Assembly: GCA_021604845.1 (NCBI GenBank)
Contig: BQJT01000003.1
Coordinates: forward strand, 1-64,000
Reading direction: 5' to 3'
Length of the DNA: 64,000 nucleotides
Origin: Cyclobacteriaceae bacterium
Lineage (GTDB): Bacteria; Bacteroidota; Bacteroidia; Cytophagales; Cyclobacteriaceae
In this document: in pieces, positions 7,630 to 58,948 of the stretch
How the letters are laid out: each line of letters opens with the position of its first letter
Position numbering within the stretch: position 1 is the stretch's first letter
Position numbers and translations under genes: made by a program
The notes under the pieces: generated by a model
Told to the model about the DNA's origin: nothing
What the model saw: only the letters and a program-made list of their open reading frames with translations
Databases searched by the model: none

Positions 7630-7657
7630 ATTGAGAATTGATTATTGAACATTTCCC
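7630..7657. repeat. Short heptad repeat, ATTGAAC-type
   Basis: Four 7-base units after the first cyclase gene: ATTGAGA, ATTGATT, then ATTGAAC and ATTTCCC. The same unit type appears on the minus strand at 884-918. Confidence 0.45.
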
Positions 7658-11604: not shown

Positions 11605-11738
11605 TACCAATAAGATATTAAGATTTTTTGTCTTACCAACCAATCCTTGGATAAATCAAGGTAGAATACGGAAACACAAAAAGGTTGAGGAGGACGGAAT
11701 CTCGTAGAATTAAAATTGCTTATTTATTCCGTAGGGAT

Positions 11739-11751
11739 TTTTCGTAATTTG
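11739..11751 (+). promoter_or_regulatory. Putative -7 promoter element of second cyclase gene
   Basis: TTTTCGTAATTTG, matching 12 of 13 bases with the element at 5505-5517 before the paralogous cyclase. It lies downstream of the first possible ATG (11716), which argues that the real start is the ATG at 11785. Confidence 0.5.
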
Positions 11752-11784
11752 CCATTAGCAGTTACTATTCTGAATTTTCAAGAG

Positions 11785-13893
11785 ATGACCCGTGTACGAA
11801 AACTAGCCGCCATCATGTTTACCGATATTGCGGGTTACAGCTCGATTATGAGTGAAGATGAGCAGCGGGCGTTCGATTTAATTGGGAAGAACCGGCAAAT
11901 TCAGCGGCCGCTAATAGAACAGTATCAGGGTAAATTGCTGAAAGAGATCGGTGACGGGGTGCTGGCCAGCTTCAGTACCGTTTCAGATGCTGTTTATTGT
12001 GCGGGAGCAATTCAGAAGGCTTGTTTAGCTGAACCAGATCTTAACCTGCGGATTGGAATTCACCTTGGTGAAGTGGTTTTTGAAGGAGAAGATGCATTTG
12101 GGGATGGAGTCAATATTGCCTCCAGGCTTGAACCGCTGGCGCCAATCGGAGGTATAGTAGTATCAGATTCCGTAAATCGCGATCTGATCAACAAGCAGGG
12201 GATTGAGTCGGTATTTATGGCCGAAAAGACCTTGAAAAACATAAAAGAGCCAATTAAGATCTTTGAGGTTAAAGTTCACCAGATTCCGTCAGTTGAACCC
12301 GAATCAGAAATACACCAGCCAGAGGATGCAATGAAAAGTCCTAAAGTCAAGTGGTGGGTTCCAGTGATTTTTTCGATTGGGATAATATTAATTGGAGCAT
12401 TGCTGATTTTCAAAAATTCAAGTGGCGAATCCATTGAAAAACTGGAATCTGGTATCGCGTTGAAAAAATCAATTGCGGTTTTACCATTTTCTGATTTTTC
12501 CCCTGAAAAGAATCAGGATTGGTTTTCAGACGGTTTGACCGAAGAGCTGCTTAACTGCCTGGCCAGGCTCCCCGAGTTACAGGTTACCGCCAGGACCTCT
12601 TCCTTTGCCTTCAAAGGTAAAGATCTGCCGGTACAGCTTATTGCAGACTCGCTAGGCGTTAACTACTTGTTGGAGGGATCCGTAAGAAAGTCTGGGAATA
12701 AACTCAGGGTAACCGCACAGCTCATTAATCCGAAACAGGACTATCATTTGTGGGCAGAAACCTATGATCGGGAGTTCGATGATGTTTTCATAATTCAGGA
12801 GGATATCGCTAACAATATAGCTGCCAGTTTGGATGTTTACCTGGATGATTTGAAGCGGGAGCAAATGTTTGCTTTTGGAACCAGGAACCCTGGAGCTTAC
12901 CAATATTATTTACAAGGAAACGTCCTGTTCGATAAAGCTCATTCACCAGATGGTGAAATACATGACCTTGCGGAAGCAAATACTTATTACGACCAGGCCA
13001 TTGAGCAGGACCCCGATTTTGCAGCTCCGTGGTATCGGCATCAGGATGTGTATTCTCATTTACTAACACTGGCTTCAGATGAACATTGGCCGGATACCCT
13101 GACCAAGGAGGTGGCCATAAATCAGGTCCATAATGATGTAAACTTGGCAAGGTCCAAAGCGCAGGGAAGGGCGGAGGCCCTTTTCTATGAAATGGAGTAC
13201 GCTATGGTTACCAGTGATTGGAGTAAGGTACCTGAATTGTTTTACGAACTGGAAACAAATCCCCAGTATCTGGCGCCCATAAGTCATTTCGGAGGCGGTT
13301 GGTCGCCGAGCCTTTTTATTGCTCTGGAACGGTCCGATTTAGGTTTAAAGCTGGCACATCATGAGTTAATCAATGACCCGTTGTCGAATAGAGTTAAACG
13401 TTCAATCGCGGAGTACTTAACCGCCCAGAACCTATACGACAGCGCAACGTTTTGGAATGGTCAGTATCTTAAGGCAACCGGCCAGGATTTAGGTTTTCTT
13501 GGTCTTTTTTTGGAGCCGGAAAGGGCCCAGGAGGTAATCGAGAACCAGTCAAGTGAACCTAACAATCTAATCCATTTTGCAAAAGCCATACAGGGTGGCT
13601 ATGAAATACCAAATGATTTCGAAGAAAATCTAAATTCACCGGGCGCTAAATTGATTGGCTGCTATGCCTATAGTTTCACTGGAAATCAGTCTAAAGCCGA
13701 CAGCATAGCCGCCAGCCTTGATAGTCGATTTATGGGTTCATTCACAATCTCCGACCGCATTATAAATTTTGGGGGCAAGATAAGGTTTAATCTAAGCGCT
13801 ACTCCCAATTTCGCAGCCAGATTGAAAGAAGGCGGAATTACAGACCTGGAAGCCTACCAGGAAAGGCATTGGGCGAATATTGATAACCGCTGA
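11785..13893 (+). CDS. Class III adenylate cyclase with TM segment, FlgO/TolB-like domain and TPRs (second copy)
   Basis: About 702 residues from the ATG at 11785, where the protein begins MTRVRKLAAIMFTDIAGYSS and aligns without gap with the paralogue at 5543. An ATG at 11716 would add 23 residues but lies before the shared promoter-like motif. All cyclase residues are kept: Asp14, Lys53, Asp57, Asp107, Asn110, Arg114. A membrane helix lies at about 190-212, followed by the IAVLPFSDFS...WFSDGLTEELL domain and TPR-like helices, which are much more divergent from the first copy than the catalytic domain. This pattern (same output, different sensor half) suggests the two enzymes answer different signals (inference). 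The stop codon is also the first triplet of a heptad repeat array. Confidence 0.93.
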   Translation: MTRVRKLAAIMFTDIAGYSSIMSEDEQRAFDLIGKNRQIQRPLIEQYQGKLLKEIGDGVLASFSTVSDAVYCAGAIQKACLAEPDLNLRIGIHLGEVVFEGEDAFGDGVNIASRLEPLAPIGGIVVSDSVNRDLINKQGIESVFMAEKTLKNIKEPIKIFEVKVHQIPSVEPESEIHQPEDAMKSPKVKWWVPVIFSIGIILIGALLIFKNSSGESIEKLESGIALKKSIAVLPFSDFSPEKNQDWFSDGLTEELLNCLARLPELQVTARTSSFAFKGKDLPVQLIADSLGVNYLLEGSVRKSGNKLRVTAQLINPKQDYHLWAETYDREFDDVFIIQEDIANNIAASLDVYLDDLKREQMFAFGTRNPGAYQYYLQGNVLFDKAHSPDGEIHDLAEANTYYDQAIEQDPDFAAPWYRHQDVYSHLLTLASDEHWPDTLTKEVAINQVHNDVNLARSKAQGRAEALFYEMEYAMVTSDWSKVPELFYELETNPQYLAPISHFGGGWSPSLFIALERSDLGLKLAHHELINDPLSNRVKRSIAEYLTAQNLYDSATFWNGQYLKATGQDLGFLGLFLEPERAQEVIENQSSEPNNLIHFAKAIQGGYEIPNDFEENLNSPGAKLIGCYAYSFTGNQSKADSIAASLDSRFMGSFTISDRIINFGGKIRFNLSATPNFAARLKEGGITDLEAYQERHWANIDNR

Positions 13894-13967
13894 TTTTAAT
13901 GAATAATGAACTATGAACTATGAACGATGAACGATGAACGATGAATAATGAACAATGAATAATGAGC
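13891..13967. repeat. Heptad repeat array, TGAAYRA type
   Basis: Eleven consecutive 7-base units beginning exactly at the TGA stop of the cyclase gene (TGATTTT first, then AATGAAT/AATGAAC/TATGAAC/GATGAAC variants). Units agree in ATGAA; the remaining two positions vary. No reading frame of interest. Confidence 0.85.
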
Positions 13968-13977
13968 TACGTGCCTT

Positions 13978-14103
13978 ACTCCATGCTCCCTGCTCCATGC
14001 TCCATGCTCCCTGCTCCCTGCTCCATGCTCCATGCTCTCTGCTCTCCGCTCCCTGCTCCCTGCTCCCTGCTCCCTGCTCCCTGCGCCCCACTCCCCACCA
14101 TAA
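13978..14103. repeat. Heptad repeat array, GCTCCMT type
   Basis: Eighteen 7-base units in unbroken phase, mostly GCTCCCT and GCTCCAT, with some decayed units at both ends (GCTCTCT, GCGCCCC, ACTCCCC). Strongly strand-asymmetric (pyrimidine-rich on plus). Follows the ATGAA-type array after 10 bases and runs in the same phase into the next block. Confidence 0.9.
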
Positions 14104-14138
14104 TTCGCAATTCATAATTCGTAATTTCCCTATTCCCA
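14104..14138. repeat. Heptad repeat array, TTCRTAA type
   Basis: Five 7-base units (TTCGCAA, TTCATAA, TTCGTAA and two decayed ones) continuing the phase of the preceding pyrimidine-rich array but with a different unit sequence. Ends directly before the -7 element of glyQS. Confidence 0.75.
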
Positions 14139-14139
14139 T

Positions 14140-14147
14140 TATCTTTG
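14140..14147 (+). promoter_or_regulatory. Putative -7 element of glyQS
   Basis: TATCTTTG fits the Bacteroidota TAnnTTTG consensus and is 19 bases before the ATG at 14167. No good TTG -33 element is visible, because that region is occupied by repeat units. Confidence 0.55.
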
Positions 14148-14166
14148 CTGCCTGAAATAAAAAATT

Positions 14167-15711
14167 ATGAGTCAATCTGAAGATAATCTGCTTAAAAAGG
14201 TGATCGCGCATGCCAAGGAGTATGGTTACGTTTTTCCCTCGAGCGAAATCTATGATGGCCTCAGTGCAACCTATGATTATGGTCAGTATGGGGTGGAATT
14301 AAAGAATCACTTAAAGCAGTACTGGTGGCAGGCTATGGTGCGTATGAATGAAAACATTGTAGGTATCGATGCTGCTATTTTTATGCACCCAACCACCTGG
14401 AAAGCTTCAGGGCATGTGGATGCTTTTAATGACCCATTAATAGATAATAAAGACTCAAAAAAGAGATACCGGGCCGATCAGCTTATCGAGGAATATGTTT
14501 CCAAGATAGAGAATAAAATTGCCAAGGAAGAAGGCAAGGCCGCCAAACGTTTTGGGGACGCTTTCGATCTGGATCAGTTCCGGGGCACCAATCCAAGGGT
14601 ACTGCAATATCAAAGTCAAATTGATTCCATCAATCAAAAACTCAAGGAATCAATCGAACAGGGTGCACTGCAGGATCTTAAAGCGCTTATTGAGGAATTG
14701 GGAATTGCCGATCCGGTTTCCGGGTCAAGAAACTGGACGGATGTGCGCCAGTTCAACCTGATGTTCTCTACTGAACTGGGGTCAGTAGCCGGAGAATCAG
14801 GTAAGATTTACCTCCGGCCGGAGACTGCTCAGGGAATTTTTGTAAACTTCCTCAATGTCCAGAAAACCGGCAGAATGAGAATTCCGTTTGGTATAGCCCA
14901 AATTGGCAAAGCTTTCCGCAACGAGATTATTGCCCGCCAGTTTATTTTCAGAATGAGGGAATTTGAACAGATGGAGATGCAGTTTTTTGTAAAACCCGGA
15001 GAGGAACTGGACTGGTATCAGGAGTGGAAAGAAAAAAGAATGAAATGGCACCAGGCTTTAGGGCTGGGTTCAGAAAATTATCGATTTCATGATCATTTGA
15101 ATTTGGCACATTACGCCAACGCCGCCTGTGATATTGAATTTAAATTTCCCATGGGTTTCAAAGAGCTGGAGGGAATTCATTCACGCACTGATTTTGACCT
15201 GAAGGCACATGAGCAGCACAGTGGGAAGAAACTGCAATTCTTTGACCCTTCAGAAGATAAAAGCTATGTTCCATATGTTATAGAAACATCCATTGGACTG
15301 GATCGCTTGTTCCTTGCCTTACTGTCTAAAAGCTATACTGAGGAAACGCTGGAAGATGGCAGTGAACGGACTGTATTAAAAATTCCCGCCCCATTGGCTC
15401 CGGTAAAGGCAGCGATTTTACCATTGGTTAATAAAGATGGCTTACCTGAAAAGGCCCGGCAGGTTTTTGACCAACTAAAATACCATCTATTGTGTCAGAT
15501 TGACTTCAAGGATGCAATTGGCAGAAGGTACCGCCGTCAGGATGCCATTGGCACGCCTTTCGGTATAACCATCGATCACCAAACCCTGGAGGATGATACA
15601 GTTACATTACGTGACCGGGATTCAATGGTCCAGGAAAGAGTGCAGATCACCCAACTAACGTCGGTGCTGCTGGAAAAATGCAGCCTGCAACAGTTGCTCA
15701 AACAACTTTAA
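14167..15711 (+). CDS. glyQS: Glycine--tRNA ligase, single-chain type
   Basis: A 514-residue class II aminoacyl-tRNA synthetase of the homodimeric (eukaryote/archaea/Bacteroidota) type that charges tRNA-Gly. Seen: the N-terminal YGYVFPSSEIYDGLSATYDYG block, motif 2-like region with LRPETAQGIFVNF and IAQIGKAFRNEI, FRMREFEQMEMQFF, and the C-terminal anticodon-binding domain with APVKAAILPLV and RYRRQDAIGTPFGITID. Length is as expected. Start ATG 14167 matches the family. Followed by dgt after three bases, so the two are co-transcribed. Confidence 0.97.
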   Translation: MSQSEDNLLKKVIAHAKEYGYVFPSSEIYDGLSATYDYGQYGVELKNHLKQYWWQAMVRMNENIVGIDAAIFMHPTTWKASGHVDAFNDPLIDNKDSKKRYRADQLIEEYVSKIENKIAKEEGKAAKRFGDAFDLDQFRGTNPRVLQYQSQIDSINQKLKESIEQGALQDLKALIEELGIADPVSGSRNWTDVRQFNLMFSTELGSVAGESGKIYLRPETAQGIFVNFLNVQKTGRMRIPFGIAQIGKAFRNEIIARQFIFRMREFEQMEMQFFVKPGEELDWYQEWKEKRMKWHQALGLGSENYRFHDHLNLAHYANAACDIEFKFPMGFKELEGIHSRTDFDLKAHEQHSGKKLQFFDPSEDKSYVPYVIETSIGLDRLFLALLSKSYTEETLEDGSERTVLKIPAPLAPVKAAILPLVNKDGLPEKARQVFDQLKYHLLCQIDFKDAIGRRYRRQDAIGTPFGITIDHQTLEDDTVTLRDRDSMVQERVQITQLTSVLLEKCSLQQLLKQL

Positions 15712-24267: not shown

Positions 24268-24500
24268 ACCACCTTGCCGGATTTGCTCTTACACCCGGTC
24301 AATATTCCACTTTTGACCCCAGGTGCTTAATTCCTATGGCTAATTTCTAATTCCCCACAGACCTTACATGTGCTATCTAATCATGGGGTTTACATTCATT
24401 ATCATGGATGAATGCGATACTTTGTAGTTGATAGTAAATCTGGATTGTTGCACAAGAACAGGCGGTTTTCACTATCGGACGCATACAAAACCTAGATAAA
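24268..24500. other. Intergenic region before fibre gene
   Basis: Holds a four-unit heptad block (24327-24354), an inverted repeat CATTCAT/ATGAATG at 24393-24414 with an 8-base loop, and a TACTTTG sequence at 24417-24423 that resembles the -7 elements in this window. No gene seen. Confidence 0.4.
24327..24354. repeat. Short heptad repeat, TAATTYC type
   Basis: Four in-phase 7-base units: TTAATTC, a decayed CTATGGC, then TAATTTC and TAATTCC. Too short to be convincing alone, but same period as the long arrays. Confidence 0.4.
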
Positions 24501-27500
24501 ATGGTATTAATTTATCTCACTCGTCATCGATTACCGGCTATCGTTCTGGTAATGTTTATACTGATACTGAGTGAATCAGCAATAAAAGCACAGAATACAG
24601 TAGGTATTGGCACATCAATCCCCAATCAAAATGCCGTGCTCGATCTGGTAAGCCCCACTGGTGATCAAGGCATACTGGTTCCAAGAGTATCCACCTCACA
24701 ACGTCAGGCGATGACATCTTCTCTGGGCAACACCGAAACTGGTTTGGTGGTGTTTGACTCCGAGTTGAAACAATTCTTTCACTGGGTTGATAATCTATGG
24801 GTAGTTGGCCTGGGAGCCTTTTCGGATGTTGCGGGAGGAGATTTACAGGGGAATTACCCTAATCCTACATTAAGGCCAAACGCGGTGAACTCAGCTACCA
24901 TTGCTGATGGGTCGGTGGCAACTGCAGATCTTGAAGATGCTTCGGTTACCGCTACCAAGGTCAATGCTGAAGGTAACGCAGACGCCATTCTTGGAACAGA
25001 CTCAGGTGGTAATCCCAGATGGGAACCCAAAACCAACTTCCTGGGTAATGGCTTGCCCGATGGTACCATAATGATTGGAGATGCCTCAAACCAGGCCCAA
25101 TCTAGAACGGTGTCAGGAGATATCACATTAGCAAACGACGGAATTGCCACGGTATCAGACAATGCTATTACCGGCGCGAAGATATTGGATGATGCCATAA
25201 CCGCTTCAGAAATTGGCACAGATGCAGTTGGTTCCGATGAGCTTGCTACCGGCTCGGTCACCAGCGATGAAATTCTGGATGGCACAATTACCAACCAGGA
25301 TCTGGCAGACAATACGATTGACGGTAGCAAGATATTGGATGAAACTATTACTGCAACAGATATTGCAACTGATGCCATAACCTCTGATGAAATTAGCAGT
25401 GGCGCAGTGGGTTCGGATGAAATAGCCGATGGAAGCATCCAGACGGTGGATATTGCCACTGGAGCAATCACCACAGCGAACATAGCAGACGGTACAATTG
25501 CCACCGACGATATAGAAAGCGGGGGTAACAACAAGGTGTTGATAACTACTGGTGCAGGAACTGTTTTCTGGGAGAACATCACACTTTTTGAAACCAGCAC
25601 CCTGGCCGAAGGCAGCATATTCGTAGGAGATGTTTCAAATACCGCGGCAGCCTTAAACGCAAAAGGATCGGGACGGGTATTAATCGGGGATGGGACATCT
25701 TTGCAATCTTTAAACATCAACGGTGATATCAATTTATCAGCCACCGGTGATGCTCAGATCAGTCCTGGAGTAGTTGGAAGTACTGAAGTAACTGACAACA
25801 GTTTAACCAGGGATGATATTGCCCCTAACGCCATTGAGGCTTCGGAACTAGCCGATAATTCTGTTGACAACGGCGCGCTTCAGGACGATGCAATATCTAC
25901 CAGTAAACTCCAGAATAACTCCATATCGACTCAGAAAATTGCTGCGGATGCAGTAACCAGTACACAGATTGTCGATGGCACCATTCTTGCCGGGGACCTG
26001 AGTGATGACGCCGTCAACACTTCGAAGATCGATGGAGAAGGGGCGGCAAATGCAGTGATGACCACAACAGGTTCAGGAGATCCCCAGTGGGAGACACGAT
26101 CCAATTTTGTTACCTCCTCCTTGCCTAATGGTAATATTTATATTGGTGATGCGGCTGGTGTTTCTCAGGTACAACCAATAAGCGGGGATCTGACTTTAAG
26201 CAGCAATGGCAATATCCAAATAAACAGCGATGTAATCGGTACTGCGGAAATTATTGACAATGCAGTTACCGTTGATGACATCGCACCCAATGCCATTGAA
26301 TCGTCAGAACTGGCAGATAATGCAGTCGATGCAGGTGCAATTCAATCCAATGCAGTGGTAACTTCCAAAATTGCCGACGGAGCGGTAAACACCTCCAAAA
26401 TTGACGGAAGCGGTAATAACAATTCAATGTTGACCACCGACGGGTCAGGTAATCCACAATGGGAAGCCAAGGCCGGATTAGATACAGACCCCGTTAATGA
26501 AATCCAGGACCTTTCCCTTTCAGTTAATACACTGGCGCTTTCCGGTGATCCCACTACGGTTGATCTTTCAGGATACCTAGATAACACTGATAATCAGGAC
26601 CTGAGTCTTACTGGTAACACACTTAGTATTACCGGTGATGCTACCAACGTAGATTTGTCGGGTTACCTGGATAATACCGATAGTCAGGATCTTGATGATG
26701 TGCTGACCCAGGGGAATAGTGCTGCCGGGTCCACAATATCTAACCTGGCCAATCCTGCTAACCCACAGGATGCGGCTACTAAAAATTATGTGGATGCGCT
26801 TGCTGCCGCGGATACCGATGGTGATCCGAATAATGAAATTCAAGACCTCTCTCTAACGGGGAACACCCTCAGTCTTACCGGCGATGCCTCCACCGTGGAT
26901 CTGTCTGGTTATTTGGATAATACGGACGCTCAGGACCTTTCTTTGACCGGAAATACCCTGAGCATCACTGCGGATGCTACTACCGTTGATCTATCTGGTT
27001 ATCTCGATAATACCGACGCTCAGGATCTTTCCTTAACAGGAAATATCCTCAGTGTTACCGGCGATGCCACTACGGTAGATCTATCCGGTTACCTTGACAA
27101 CACAGACAACCAGGATCTGGCTGATGTATTAAGTCAAGGAAGTGACGCCGGAGGTACAGCTATAAGTAACGCTGCCAACCCAACTAACGCACAAGACGTG
27201 GCCACTAAGGATTATGTTGACAACATTAGCATTTCCGCCAGCAACATTAATAATAATGCCATTACTTCCACAAAAATACTAGATGGCACCATCGCAGATG
27301 TCGACATCAATGTATCAGCTGCTATAGACGGCAGTAAAATAAACCCCGATTTTGGTAGTCAGAATATTCAAACTTCCGGAACACTAAATTCGGGTGCGGC
27401 GACAGTAGCAAGTTTAACTGTGTCAGATTTGGCAGGGTCAAATGACACTTATATTGGAGTTAGTACTATCAACTCATTTACTATTAATCCCTCAGGAGTT

Positions 27501-37434: not shown

Positions 37435-37497
37435 ACAACAATTCTATAATCCACAATCTACATTCCCCAATCAACTAATCAAATGCTCAAAGGTTCA
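37435..37497. repeat. Heptad repeat array starting at the CHAT-gene stop codon
   Basis: On the minus strand the TGA stop of the CHAT gene (37497-37495) opens a run of nine 7-base units, best conserved in the middle (TGTAGAT, TGTGGAT, TATAGAA). Runs towards the AI-2E gene. Weakly conserved, but in phase with the stop codon like the arrays at 13891 and 58782. Confidence 0.55.
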
Positions 37498-57990: not shown

Positions 57991-58784
57991 AAGAAACGGA
58001 TTTACAAAAAGTGCTTCCAAAAGTAATTGAGATAGTAAAGGAAGGTGGAGGTTTTATTCGCCAGGAACGAACTCGATTTGATCCTGAAAAACTCGAATTT
58101 AAAGGTACCAACGATCTGGTTTCATACGTAGACAGGGAAGCGGAAAAAATTTTGGTGTCCGGCCTGGGACAGATATTGCCGGAAGCAGGTTTTATTACCG
58201 AGGAAGGTACAGTAACTCAGGAAACTGCCAGGTTACAATGGGTTATAGACCCTCTTGACGGTACTACGAATTTTGTTCATGGCATACCGTTCTATTCTGT
58301 TAGTGTGGCGCTGTTGTTGAACGGGCAGCCCGTTCTTGGTGTGGTTTACGAGATCAATCAGGATGAGTGTTTTCATGCAATTCAGCAGGGAAAAGCTTAT
58401 TGTAATGATAAAGAGATCAAAGTATCTACCTCATCGGCGCTGTCAGATAGTGTGATTACCTCAGGCTACCCACATTTAAACTTCGATCACCTACCATTCT
58501 ACATGGACACGATTGCGGTACTGATGCAGCAGACCCAGGGAATGCGCAGGATGGGAAGCGCAGCAGCAGATCTTGCATATGTAGCCTGCGGCAGGGTCTC
58601 CTGTTTTTTCGAGTCCAACCTCAACTCTTATGATGTTGCTGCCGGAGCATTAATAGTACAACAGGCAGGTGGTCGGGTGACTGATTTTCAAGGAGGTAAT
58701 AACTGGCTATTTGGACGTGAAATTATTGCAGCAAATGGGGTGCACCTTGACGTATTGGAGATAATACAAAGACACTGGAAGTGA
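57987..58784 (+). CDS. suhB: Inositol monophosphatase family protein
   Basis: A 265-residue Mg2+/Li+-sensitive phosphatase. Seen: EAEKILVSGL, FITEEGT, the metal-binding WVIDPLDGTTNFVHGIPFYSVSVAL, and the C-terminal SYDVAAGALIVQQAGGRVTDF. Dephosphorylates myo-inositol phosphates and related sugar phosphates; the real substrate here is unknown, and SuhB homologues also act in rRNA transcription in proteobacteria. Overlaps lnt by four bases. Its TGA stop is the first triplet of a heptad array. Confidence 0.93.
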   Translation: MKETDLQKVLPKVIEIVKEGGGFIRQERTRFDPEKLEFKGTNDLVSYVDREAEKILVSGLGQILPEAGFITEEGTVTQETARLQWVIDPLDGTTNFVHGIPFYSVSVALLLNGQPVLGVVYEINQDECFHAIQQGKAYCNDKEIKVSTSSALSDSVITSGYPHLNFDHLPFYMDTIAVLMQQTQGMRRMGSAAADLAYVACGRVSCFFESNLNSYDVAAGALIVQQAGGRVTDFQGGNNWLFGREIIAANGVHLDVLEIIQRHWK

Positions 58785-58948
58785 GTTTTGAGTTTTTAAT
58801 TTTGAGTTAATAGTTTGGATGACTGATTACTACAGAGTGCCAACTGATGACTGCCAATTGCCAACCGCCGGACCGCCAACTGCCACCCCCGGACCGCCCA
58901 CTGAGGACCGCCCACCGCCAACTGAGGGTTGCTAATTGCCAACCGCCT
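58782..58948. repeat. Heptad repeat array starting at the suhB stop codon, unit drifts along the array
   Basis: Twelve in-phase 7-base units from 58782 to 58865: first TGAGTTT twice, then intermediate units (TGATTAC, TGATGAC), then TGCCAAC/TGCCAAT. After 58866 the phase is broken by insertions but GGACCGCC and CCAACTG elements go on to about 58948. The unit sequence changes gradually while the phase is held. Confidence 0.8.

What the first reader, a model, noticed from the sequence alone, without database searches (positions are those of the whole stretch)
13891..14138. Three adjoining low-complexity arrays with one 7-base period before glyQS
From the cyclase stop codon to the glyQS promoter almost every base belongs to 7-base units: eleven ATGAA-type, eighteen GCTCC-type and five TTCRTAA-type. 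The last two blocks share one uninterrupted phase (23 units) even though the unit sequence changes completely. Ordinary microsatellites keep the unit and lose the phase; here the phase is what is kept. With the arrays at 37435-37497 and 58782-58948 and the small ones at 884-918, 7630-7657 and 24327-24354, this is a recurring genome feature. Similar arrays may exist in related genomes (my recollection), but I know of no function. Seven bases is not a codon multiple and not a helix turn, so a slippage mechanism, a protein scaffold or RNA structure is possible.
Basis: seen in the sequence. Interest (0 to 1): 0.72.

Follow-up and report, generated by a model that had tools for sequence, protein, structure and literature searches.

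The report
Intergenic heptamer repeat arrays beside glyQS
The gap before this tRNA-synthetase gene is filled with short tandem repeats of a kind already known from other bacteria; they come and go quickly, are probably made by copying slips, and matter mainly because they face one way relative to the neighbouring genes, for reasons nobody knows.

Summary
The arrays are real: lag-7 identity over 13891-14138 is 0.76, against at most 0.39 in 2,000 shuffles. They belong to a genome-wide class, with 92 heptamer arrays in 1.58 Mb, 84 of them non-coding, and about 178 extrapolated per genome. The claim that phase is kept while the unit changes is weak here, because the GCTCC/TTCRTAA junction has almost no lag-7 match. 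Elsewhere phase keeping is real (407 of 415 steps are multiples of 7) but ordinary: whole-unit slippage plus substitution gives it. Nor is the period conserved: at the same site a sister species has a 172-bp octamer array, (TGTTCTAY)n, ending at the same promoter box. I file this as a new member of the known class of intergenic heptanucleotide repeats (Calothrix, Xanthomonas/Nostoc GGGNATC, Beggiatoaceae TAACTGA). Best explanation: recurrent local slippage in dispensable gene-edge DNA, with no glyQS-specific function. The interesting residue is polarity. Read away from the nearest gene, units carry AG rather than CT (35:10 here, 91:8 in 118 loci from other organisms). AT-rich arrays follow the rule too, and octamers appear to, so G-quadruplexes cannot be its general cause. 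A hairpin role and reverse-transcriptase-templated addition are not supported here.

The parts
11716..13893 (+). Upstream gene: adenylate/guanylate cyclase-domain protein, whose stop codon the first array adjoins
   Evidence: ORF; PF00211 E 4.6e-10
13895..13967 (+). Block 1: ten ATGAAYN heptamers, reading outward from the cyclase stop
   Evidence: lag-7 identity 0.81 over 13891-13965, 0 of 2,000 shuffles; boundaries and count
13968..13973 (.). Junction where the array facing out from the cyclase meets the arrays facing out from glyQS
   Evidence: gap between the two arrays called by the lag-7 scan; that it is a meeting point is inference from polarity
13974..14100 (-). Block 2: GCTCCMT heptamers on the + strand; AG-type strand GGGAGCA/GGAGCAT reads outward from glyQS
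   Evidence: lag-7 identity 0.88 over 13977-14096, 0 of 2,000 shuffles; boundaries
14099..14126 (-). Block 3: short TTCRTAA array, outward from glyQS as GAATTAY
   Evidence: Tandem Repeats Finder; 3 of 2,000 shuffles as high over 14097-14130; no lag-7 match to block 2 at the junction
14140..14147 (+). TATCTTTG, matching the Bacteroidetes -7 promoter consensus TAnnTTTG; it lies 27 bp before the glyQS start here and in the same-genus relatives
   Evidence: the promoter reading rests on the known consensus, not on mapped transcripts
14167..15711 (+). glyQS, glycyl-tRNA synthetase, downstream gene
   Evidence: PF00587 and PF03129; 89-90% identical in same-genus relatives
58782..58948 (.). Second heptamer array of the window, between the inositol-phosphatase-family and PIG-L genes
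   Evidence: 0 of 2,000 shuffles; genes

Best explanation
These are fast-evolving intergenic simple-sequence arrays. A short local sequence is duplicated by strand slippage in steps of one unit, mostly 7 bp and sometimes 8 bp. The copies diverge by substitution and are re-amplified, so one array can drift from one unit to another without losing register. They persist in the dispensable strip next to gene ends, right after stop codons or just upstream of promoters. In the cyclase-glyQS gap one array was built next to the cyclase stop and another next to the glyQS promoter, and the two meet at 13968-13973. Shown: period, recurrence, placement, polarity, and a different unit and period at the same site in relatives. 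Inferred: that slippage is the generator, and that there is no glyQS-specific function. Not explained: why 7 is preferred, why units are shared between loci, and why the arrays face one way.
For: Period 7 dominates in non-coding DNA: 73 intergenic lag-7 arrays versus 0.25 expected. Spacings are multiples of 7 in 407 of 415 steps while bases differ, and unit families intergrade in register. Flanks keep weak lag-7 identity on both sides (0.37-0.39 versus 0.26-0.29 at control lags), as decayed arrays would. Turnover is fast: octamer array at the same site in G003, none above threshold in G001, one of eight array-bearing syntenic gaps shared. (GCTCCMT)x3.7 has 93 hits here and 0 in 193 genomes of the order. 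Two Moorena orthologous arrays differ in copy number. Slippage at 7 nt as the source of heptamer abundance has been proposed before (Mrazek 2007 as cited in PMC4679880).
Against: Plain local slippage from random seeds does not predict that two arrays in this genome share a unit 42 times more often than random intergenic heptamers do, nor the polarity relative to genes. No mutation was observed directly. Relatives were too diverged to see the ancestral, array-free sequence of a gap.
Confidence: 0.6

Rival explanations
1. Arrays spread between loci: once a unit is present it is copied into other gene-edge spacers by ectopic recombination or template switching, which gives each genome its own dictionary. 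It can act together with slippage.
For: Unit sharing 0.0695 versus 0.0017; genome- or genus-restricted units; different units at the same site in G003.
Against: No array-flanking homology between loci was found or sought systematically; the same unit in distant phyla shows that unit preference alone can produce sharing.
Confidence: 0.22
2. The arrays are functional elements (terminator, insulator, leader or protein-binding scaffold) whose orientation is selected at the RNA or DNA level.
For: Strict placement and polarity at 3' and 5' gene edges in many phyla; array next to the conserved -7 box of glyQS in three species of the family.
Against: Arrays differ in unit and period or are absent at orthologous sites; arm complementarity is at the shuffled level; AT-rich units cannot form quadruplexes; -7 boxes are not clearly enriched beside arrays (6 of 18 versus 78 of 472).
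Confidence: 0.13
3. A telomerase-like or DRT10-like reverse transcriptase adds templated repeats to broken DNA ends, which are then rejoined.
For: The orientation is that of telomere repeats relative to retained DNA, and oppositely facing arrays meet inside gaps. DRT10 makes tandem-repeat DNA (PMC12632851).
Against: The only RVT_1 match in this 94%-complete assembly lies in a retrotransposon-like polyprotein on contig C212, probably eukaryotic contamination. Units drift gradually inside arrays instead of following a fixed template.
Confidence: 0.03

Closest known systems
GGGNATC heptameric repeats of Xanthomonas and Nostoc (Rehm et al. 2015, PMC4692102)
   Same: 7-bp tandem units, many loci, mostly intergenic, length and sequence variable between close relatives, and the same placement: G-strand closest to the gene on its 5' side, within 50 bp after stops on the sense strand or before starts on the antisense strand
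   Different: Those units are G-rich and quadruplex-capable with a preference for four copies; here most unit families are AT-rich, arrays are longer and mixed, and an octamer family exists
TAACTGA heptamer repeats of Beggiatoaceae, cyanobacteria and some Bacteroidetes (MacGregor 2015, PMC4679880)
   Same: 7-bp intergenic arrays near gene edges, forward before starts and in one case reversed after a stop, which is the same polarity; other heptamer assemblages noted in Bacteroidetes gaps
   Different: One unit, short sets, proposed as translational regulatory sites; here many units and rapid replacement
Tandem heptanucleotides of Calothrix and other cyanobacteria (STRR; original paper not read, cited in PMC4692102)
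   Same: Several heptanucleotide families in one genome
   Different: Different units; placement of the original set was not compared here
Long simple sequence repeats of 5-11 nt in prokaryotes (Mrazek 2007, as cited in PMC4679880)
   Same: Heptanucleotides are the commonest class in most genomes; polymerase slippage proposed as the reason
   Different: That survey scores long runs of repeats statistically; here substitution has made mixed arrays that a perfect-repeat search would only partly see (my inference)

Membership tests
Intergenic heptanucleotide repeats (STRR / heptameric SSR) | Tandem units of 7 bp well above chance | tested here: met
   0 of 2,000 shuffles for blocks 1 and 2
Intergenic heptanucleotide repeats (STRR / heptameric SSR) | Many loci per genome, mostly outside genes | tested here: met
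   92 arrays in 1.58 Mb, 84 non-coding
Intergenic heptanucleotide repeats (STRR / heptameric SSR) | Variation of copy number or unit between close relatives | tested here: met
   copy-number change itself rests on two Moorena pairs
Heptameric repeats with the Rehm 2015 placement | Reference strand closest to the gene on its 5' side | tested here: met
   51 of 72 arrays, median 6 versus 73 bp
Quadruplex-forming GGGNATC-type repeats | Runs of G able to form quadruplexes | tested here: not met
   one predicted quadruplex stretch on the - strand of block 2, but blocks 1 and 3 and most families are AT-rich or G2-type
TAACTGA repeats | Unit TAACTGA or its complement | tested here: not met
   not among the 30 commonest of the 32 consensus units in the sampled genome
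Phase-variation (contingency) repeats | Copy-number change that switches a surface or virulence gene | not tested
   the neighbouring gene is a housekeeping synthetase; no strain data
DRT10 or telomerase-like templated repeats | A bacterial reverse transcriptase of the right kind in the genome | tested here: not met
   single RVT_1 match, in a retrotransposon-like polyprotein that is probably eukaryotic contamination; assembly 94% complete

The most novel reading that the evidence does not exclude
Bacterial gene-edge arrays are built by a directional process that ignores unit sequence and length but lays the strand carrying AG 5' to 3' away from the gene, the polarity of telomere repeats. Unrelated arrays (heptamer here, octamer in G003, ACTTCTA heptamer in G037) would then arise independently in the same orientation at the same promoter, and neither quadruplexes nor hairpins would explain it.
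Probability: 0.12. Interest if true: 0.75.

Novelty: new member of a known kind. Interest (0 to 1): 0.37.

Why it matters
Two old puzzles become testable: why bacterial tandem repeats prefer 7 bp, and why they face one way relative to genes. Showing that AT-rich arrays obey the polarity, and that octamers appear to, removes the G-quadruplex as a general explanation. For glyQS itself the arrays are most likely ordinary turnover of spacer DNA.

Tried and rejected
(1) Intra-gap hairpins or terminators as the reason for two facing arrays. A few gaps are near-palindromes (L202 13201-13302, L203 3984-4058), but across 67 array-bearing gaps complementarity equals shuffled pairing.

(2) Polar growth with decay at one end. 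The two array halves are equally regular, and residual lag-7 in the flanks is only slightly higher on the 3' side.

(3) General base skew at gene edges as the source of polarity. Array-free edges show none.

(4) Horizontal transfer of one unit across phyla, suggested. The unit is absent from 193 sampled genomes of the same order, so coincidence plus unit preference is simpler; this was not tested further.

(5) Arrays marking the -7 promoter box genome-wide: 6 of 18 versus a 78/472 background, not convincing.

(6) Reverse-transcriptase-templated addition.

(7) My first reading of the G003 glyQS array as a heptamer was wrong; it is an octamer.

(8) An Rfam search of the window found nothing, and the terminator scan of 13600-14400 found no intrinsic terminator.

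Full report
What is there. Between the cyclase stop (13891-13893) and glyQS (start 14167) lie an ATGAAYN array (13895-13967), a GCTCCMT array (13974-14100) and a short TTCRTAA array (about 14099-14126), followed by a TATCTTTG box at 14140-14147. Lag-7 identity of 13891-14138 is 0.76, against a shuffled mean of 0.27 and maximum of 0.39. The first two blocks are beyond doubt and the third is weaker (3 of 2,000 shuffles).

The phase claim. At the junction of blocks 2 and 3 lag-7 matching collapses (ACTCCCC, ACCATAA, TTCGCAA), so a shared phase cannot be shown there. Elsewhere in the genome, unit changes in register are plain: GGAGCAT to GGAGTTT to TGAGTTT in L149, and ATCTAAG to CTCCAAG in L164. 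In GCTC arrays 407 of 415 successive spacings are multiples of 7. Whole-unit copying plus substitution produces this without any special rule.

A genome-wide class. I read 1.58 Mb of the assembly. It holds 92 heptamer arrays, 84 non-coding, versus 18 with period 8 and 12 with period 6 when each is assigned to its shortest lag. In intergenic DNA there are 73 lag-7 arrays against 0.25 expected. In the 1.264 Mb fetched without regard to arrays there are 43 heptamer arrays, which extrapolates to about 178 per genome; best-lag assignment of the same stretches gives 43 period-7, 10 period-8 and 9 period-6 arrays. Units are not a random sample: two arrays share a consensus unit with probability 0.0695 against 0.0017 for random intergenic heptamers. 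The commonest are AGCATGG, AAAAACT, AACAATT, AGCAGGG, AAGATCT and AATTACG (canonical forms). The 1.58 Mb includes 20 contigs chosen because they hold GCTCC arrays, so the count of that unit is inflated there.

Turnover. (GCTCCMT)x3.7 has 93 hits here and none in 193 other genomes sampled from the order; same-genus genomes were not in that sample, and G001 does hold GGAGCAT arrays. The same kind of array, (GCTCCCT)x4, is found in over 118 stretches from Cyanobacteria, Bacteroidales, Chloroflexi, Planctomycetes and others. Upstream of glyQS the -7 box is conserved 27 bp before the start in the three same-genus relatives in which the gene was found, but the array is not. G001 has no array that passes the threshold, G003 has a 172-bp octamer array (TGTTCTAY)n reaching the box, and the G004 contig begins 44 bp before the start. 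In the same family, G037 has an ACTTCTA array running into TATTTTTG. In eight array-bearing syntenic gaps only one array is shared; the relatives' stretches were found through array matches, so this is not an unbiased rate.

Polarity. Arrays sit with one particular end against a gene. With the strand carrying AG rather than CT as reference, the gene on its 5' side is a median 6 bp away and the gene on its 3' side 73 bp (51 of 72, p 4e-5). Counted per unit without assuming AG, 39 of 43 arrays within 30 bp of a gene agree within their unit family (null mean 29, maximum 37 in 5,000 simulations). In 118 loci from other organisms, arrays within 60 bp of a gene follow the rule 74:4 at 3' edges and 31:5 at 5' edges; these loci were all fetched through one G/C-rich unit and many come from a few cyanobacterial genomes. 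The best single marker is AG read outward: 35:10 here, 91:8 in the foreign loci and 29:2 for foreign AT-rich units. Octamer arrays appear to follow it too, by inspection of the list, not by a test. The glyQS octamer of G003 and the array of G037 have the same polarity although the unit, and in one case the period, differs, so polarity is not merely inherited. Array-free edges have no such base skew. Genes were called by a simple ORF method, so start positions are approximate, and arrays within one gap are not independent. At 5' edges in tandem gaps the rule is weaker (15 of 26 here, 38 of 54 in the foreign loci).

Reading of the window. Block 1 is an array facing out from the cyclase stop. Blocks 2 and 3 face out from glyQS. 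The break at 13968-13973 is where they meet, which would explain why only the last two blocks seemed to share a phase.

Mechanism. Recurrent whole-unit slippage in dispensable gene-edge DNA accounts for period, heterogeneity, placement outside genes and turnover. It does not by itself account for unit sharing among loci or for polarity. Quadruplexes cannot be general. Hairpins are not above chance, though the single glyQS gap folds with z -2.2 and -2.4. A templated, telomerase-like source was considered because the polarity is that of telomeres and because DRT10 enzymes make tandem-repeat DNA (PMC12632851). The assembly shows no bacterial reverse transcriptase of the RVT_1 family; the sole hit is in a retrotransposon-like polyprotein that I take to be eukaryotic contamination.

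Relation to the literature. Rehm et al. 2015 (PMC4692102) described heptameric GGGNATC repeats with the same placement in Xanthomonas and Nostoc and left the function open. MacGregor 2015 (PMC4679880) described TAACTGA repeats, mostly forward before starts and in one case reversed after a stop, and noted heptamer assemblages in Bacteroidetes. This finding belongs with them. What is added here is the mixed and AT-rich units, the octamers, the change of period at one site, and hence the removal of the quadruplex as a general explanation.

Noticed in passing
L127 12131-12376, L141 1784-2446, L147 8950-9079, L153 7448-7651 and 8644-8889, L227 1555-1751: A single octamer family (GTGAGTTG / CAACTCAC) forms long period-8 arrays in this genome, mostly hugging stop codons with the same polarity as the heptamers.
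   Followed up: partly
L169 842-1013 (G003 contig 163): The sister species has a 172-bp octamer array (TGTTCTAY)n directly upstream of the glyQS -7 box, at the site where this genome has heptamers.
   Followed up: yes
G000 contig C212 (L289): A continuous reverse-transcriptase polyprotein frame that looks like a eukaryotic LTR retrotransposon, so this contig is probably contamination of the assembly.
   Followed up: no
L224 3146-3439, L211 5554-5745, L128 15295-15476, L156 8515-8999: A recurring palindrome like GCCTGCCGGCAGGC in several array-bearing gaps, possibly a separate repeat element; seen by eye only.
   Followed up: no
window 26854-27118: A 90-bp tandem repeat (2.9 copies) inside a long open reading frame, in step with the codons.
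   Followed up: no
L149 2692-2827: The GGAGCAT unit has no stop codon in any frame on either strand, so frames run through such arrays, and one called gene appears to start at an array-like ATGGAGCAT.
   Followed up: no
G000 contig C277 1145-1687 (L290): A Ku homologue, so non-homologous end joining may be available to rearrange gaps.
   Followed up: no
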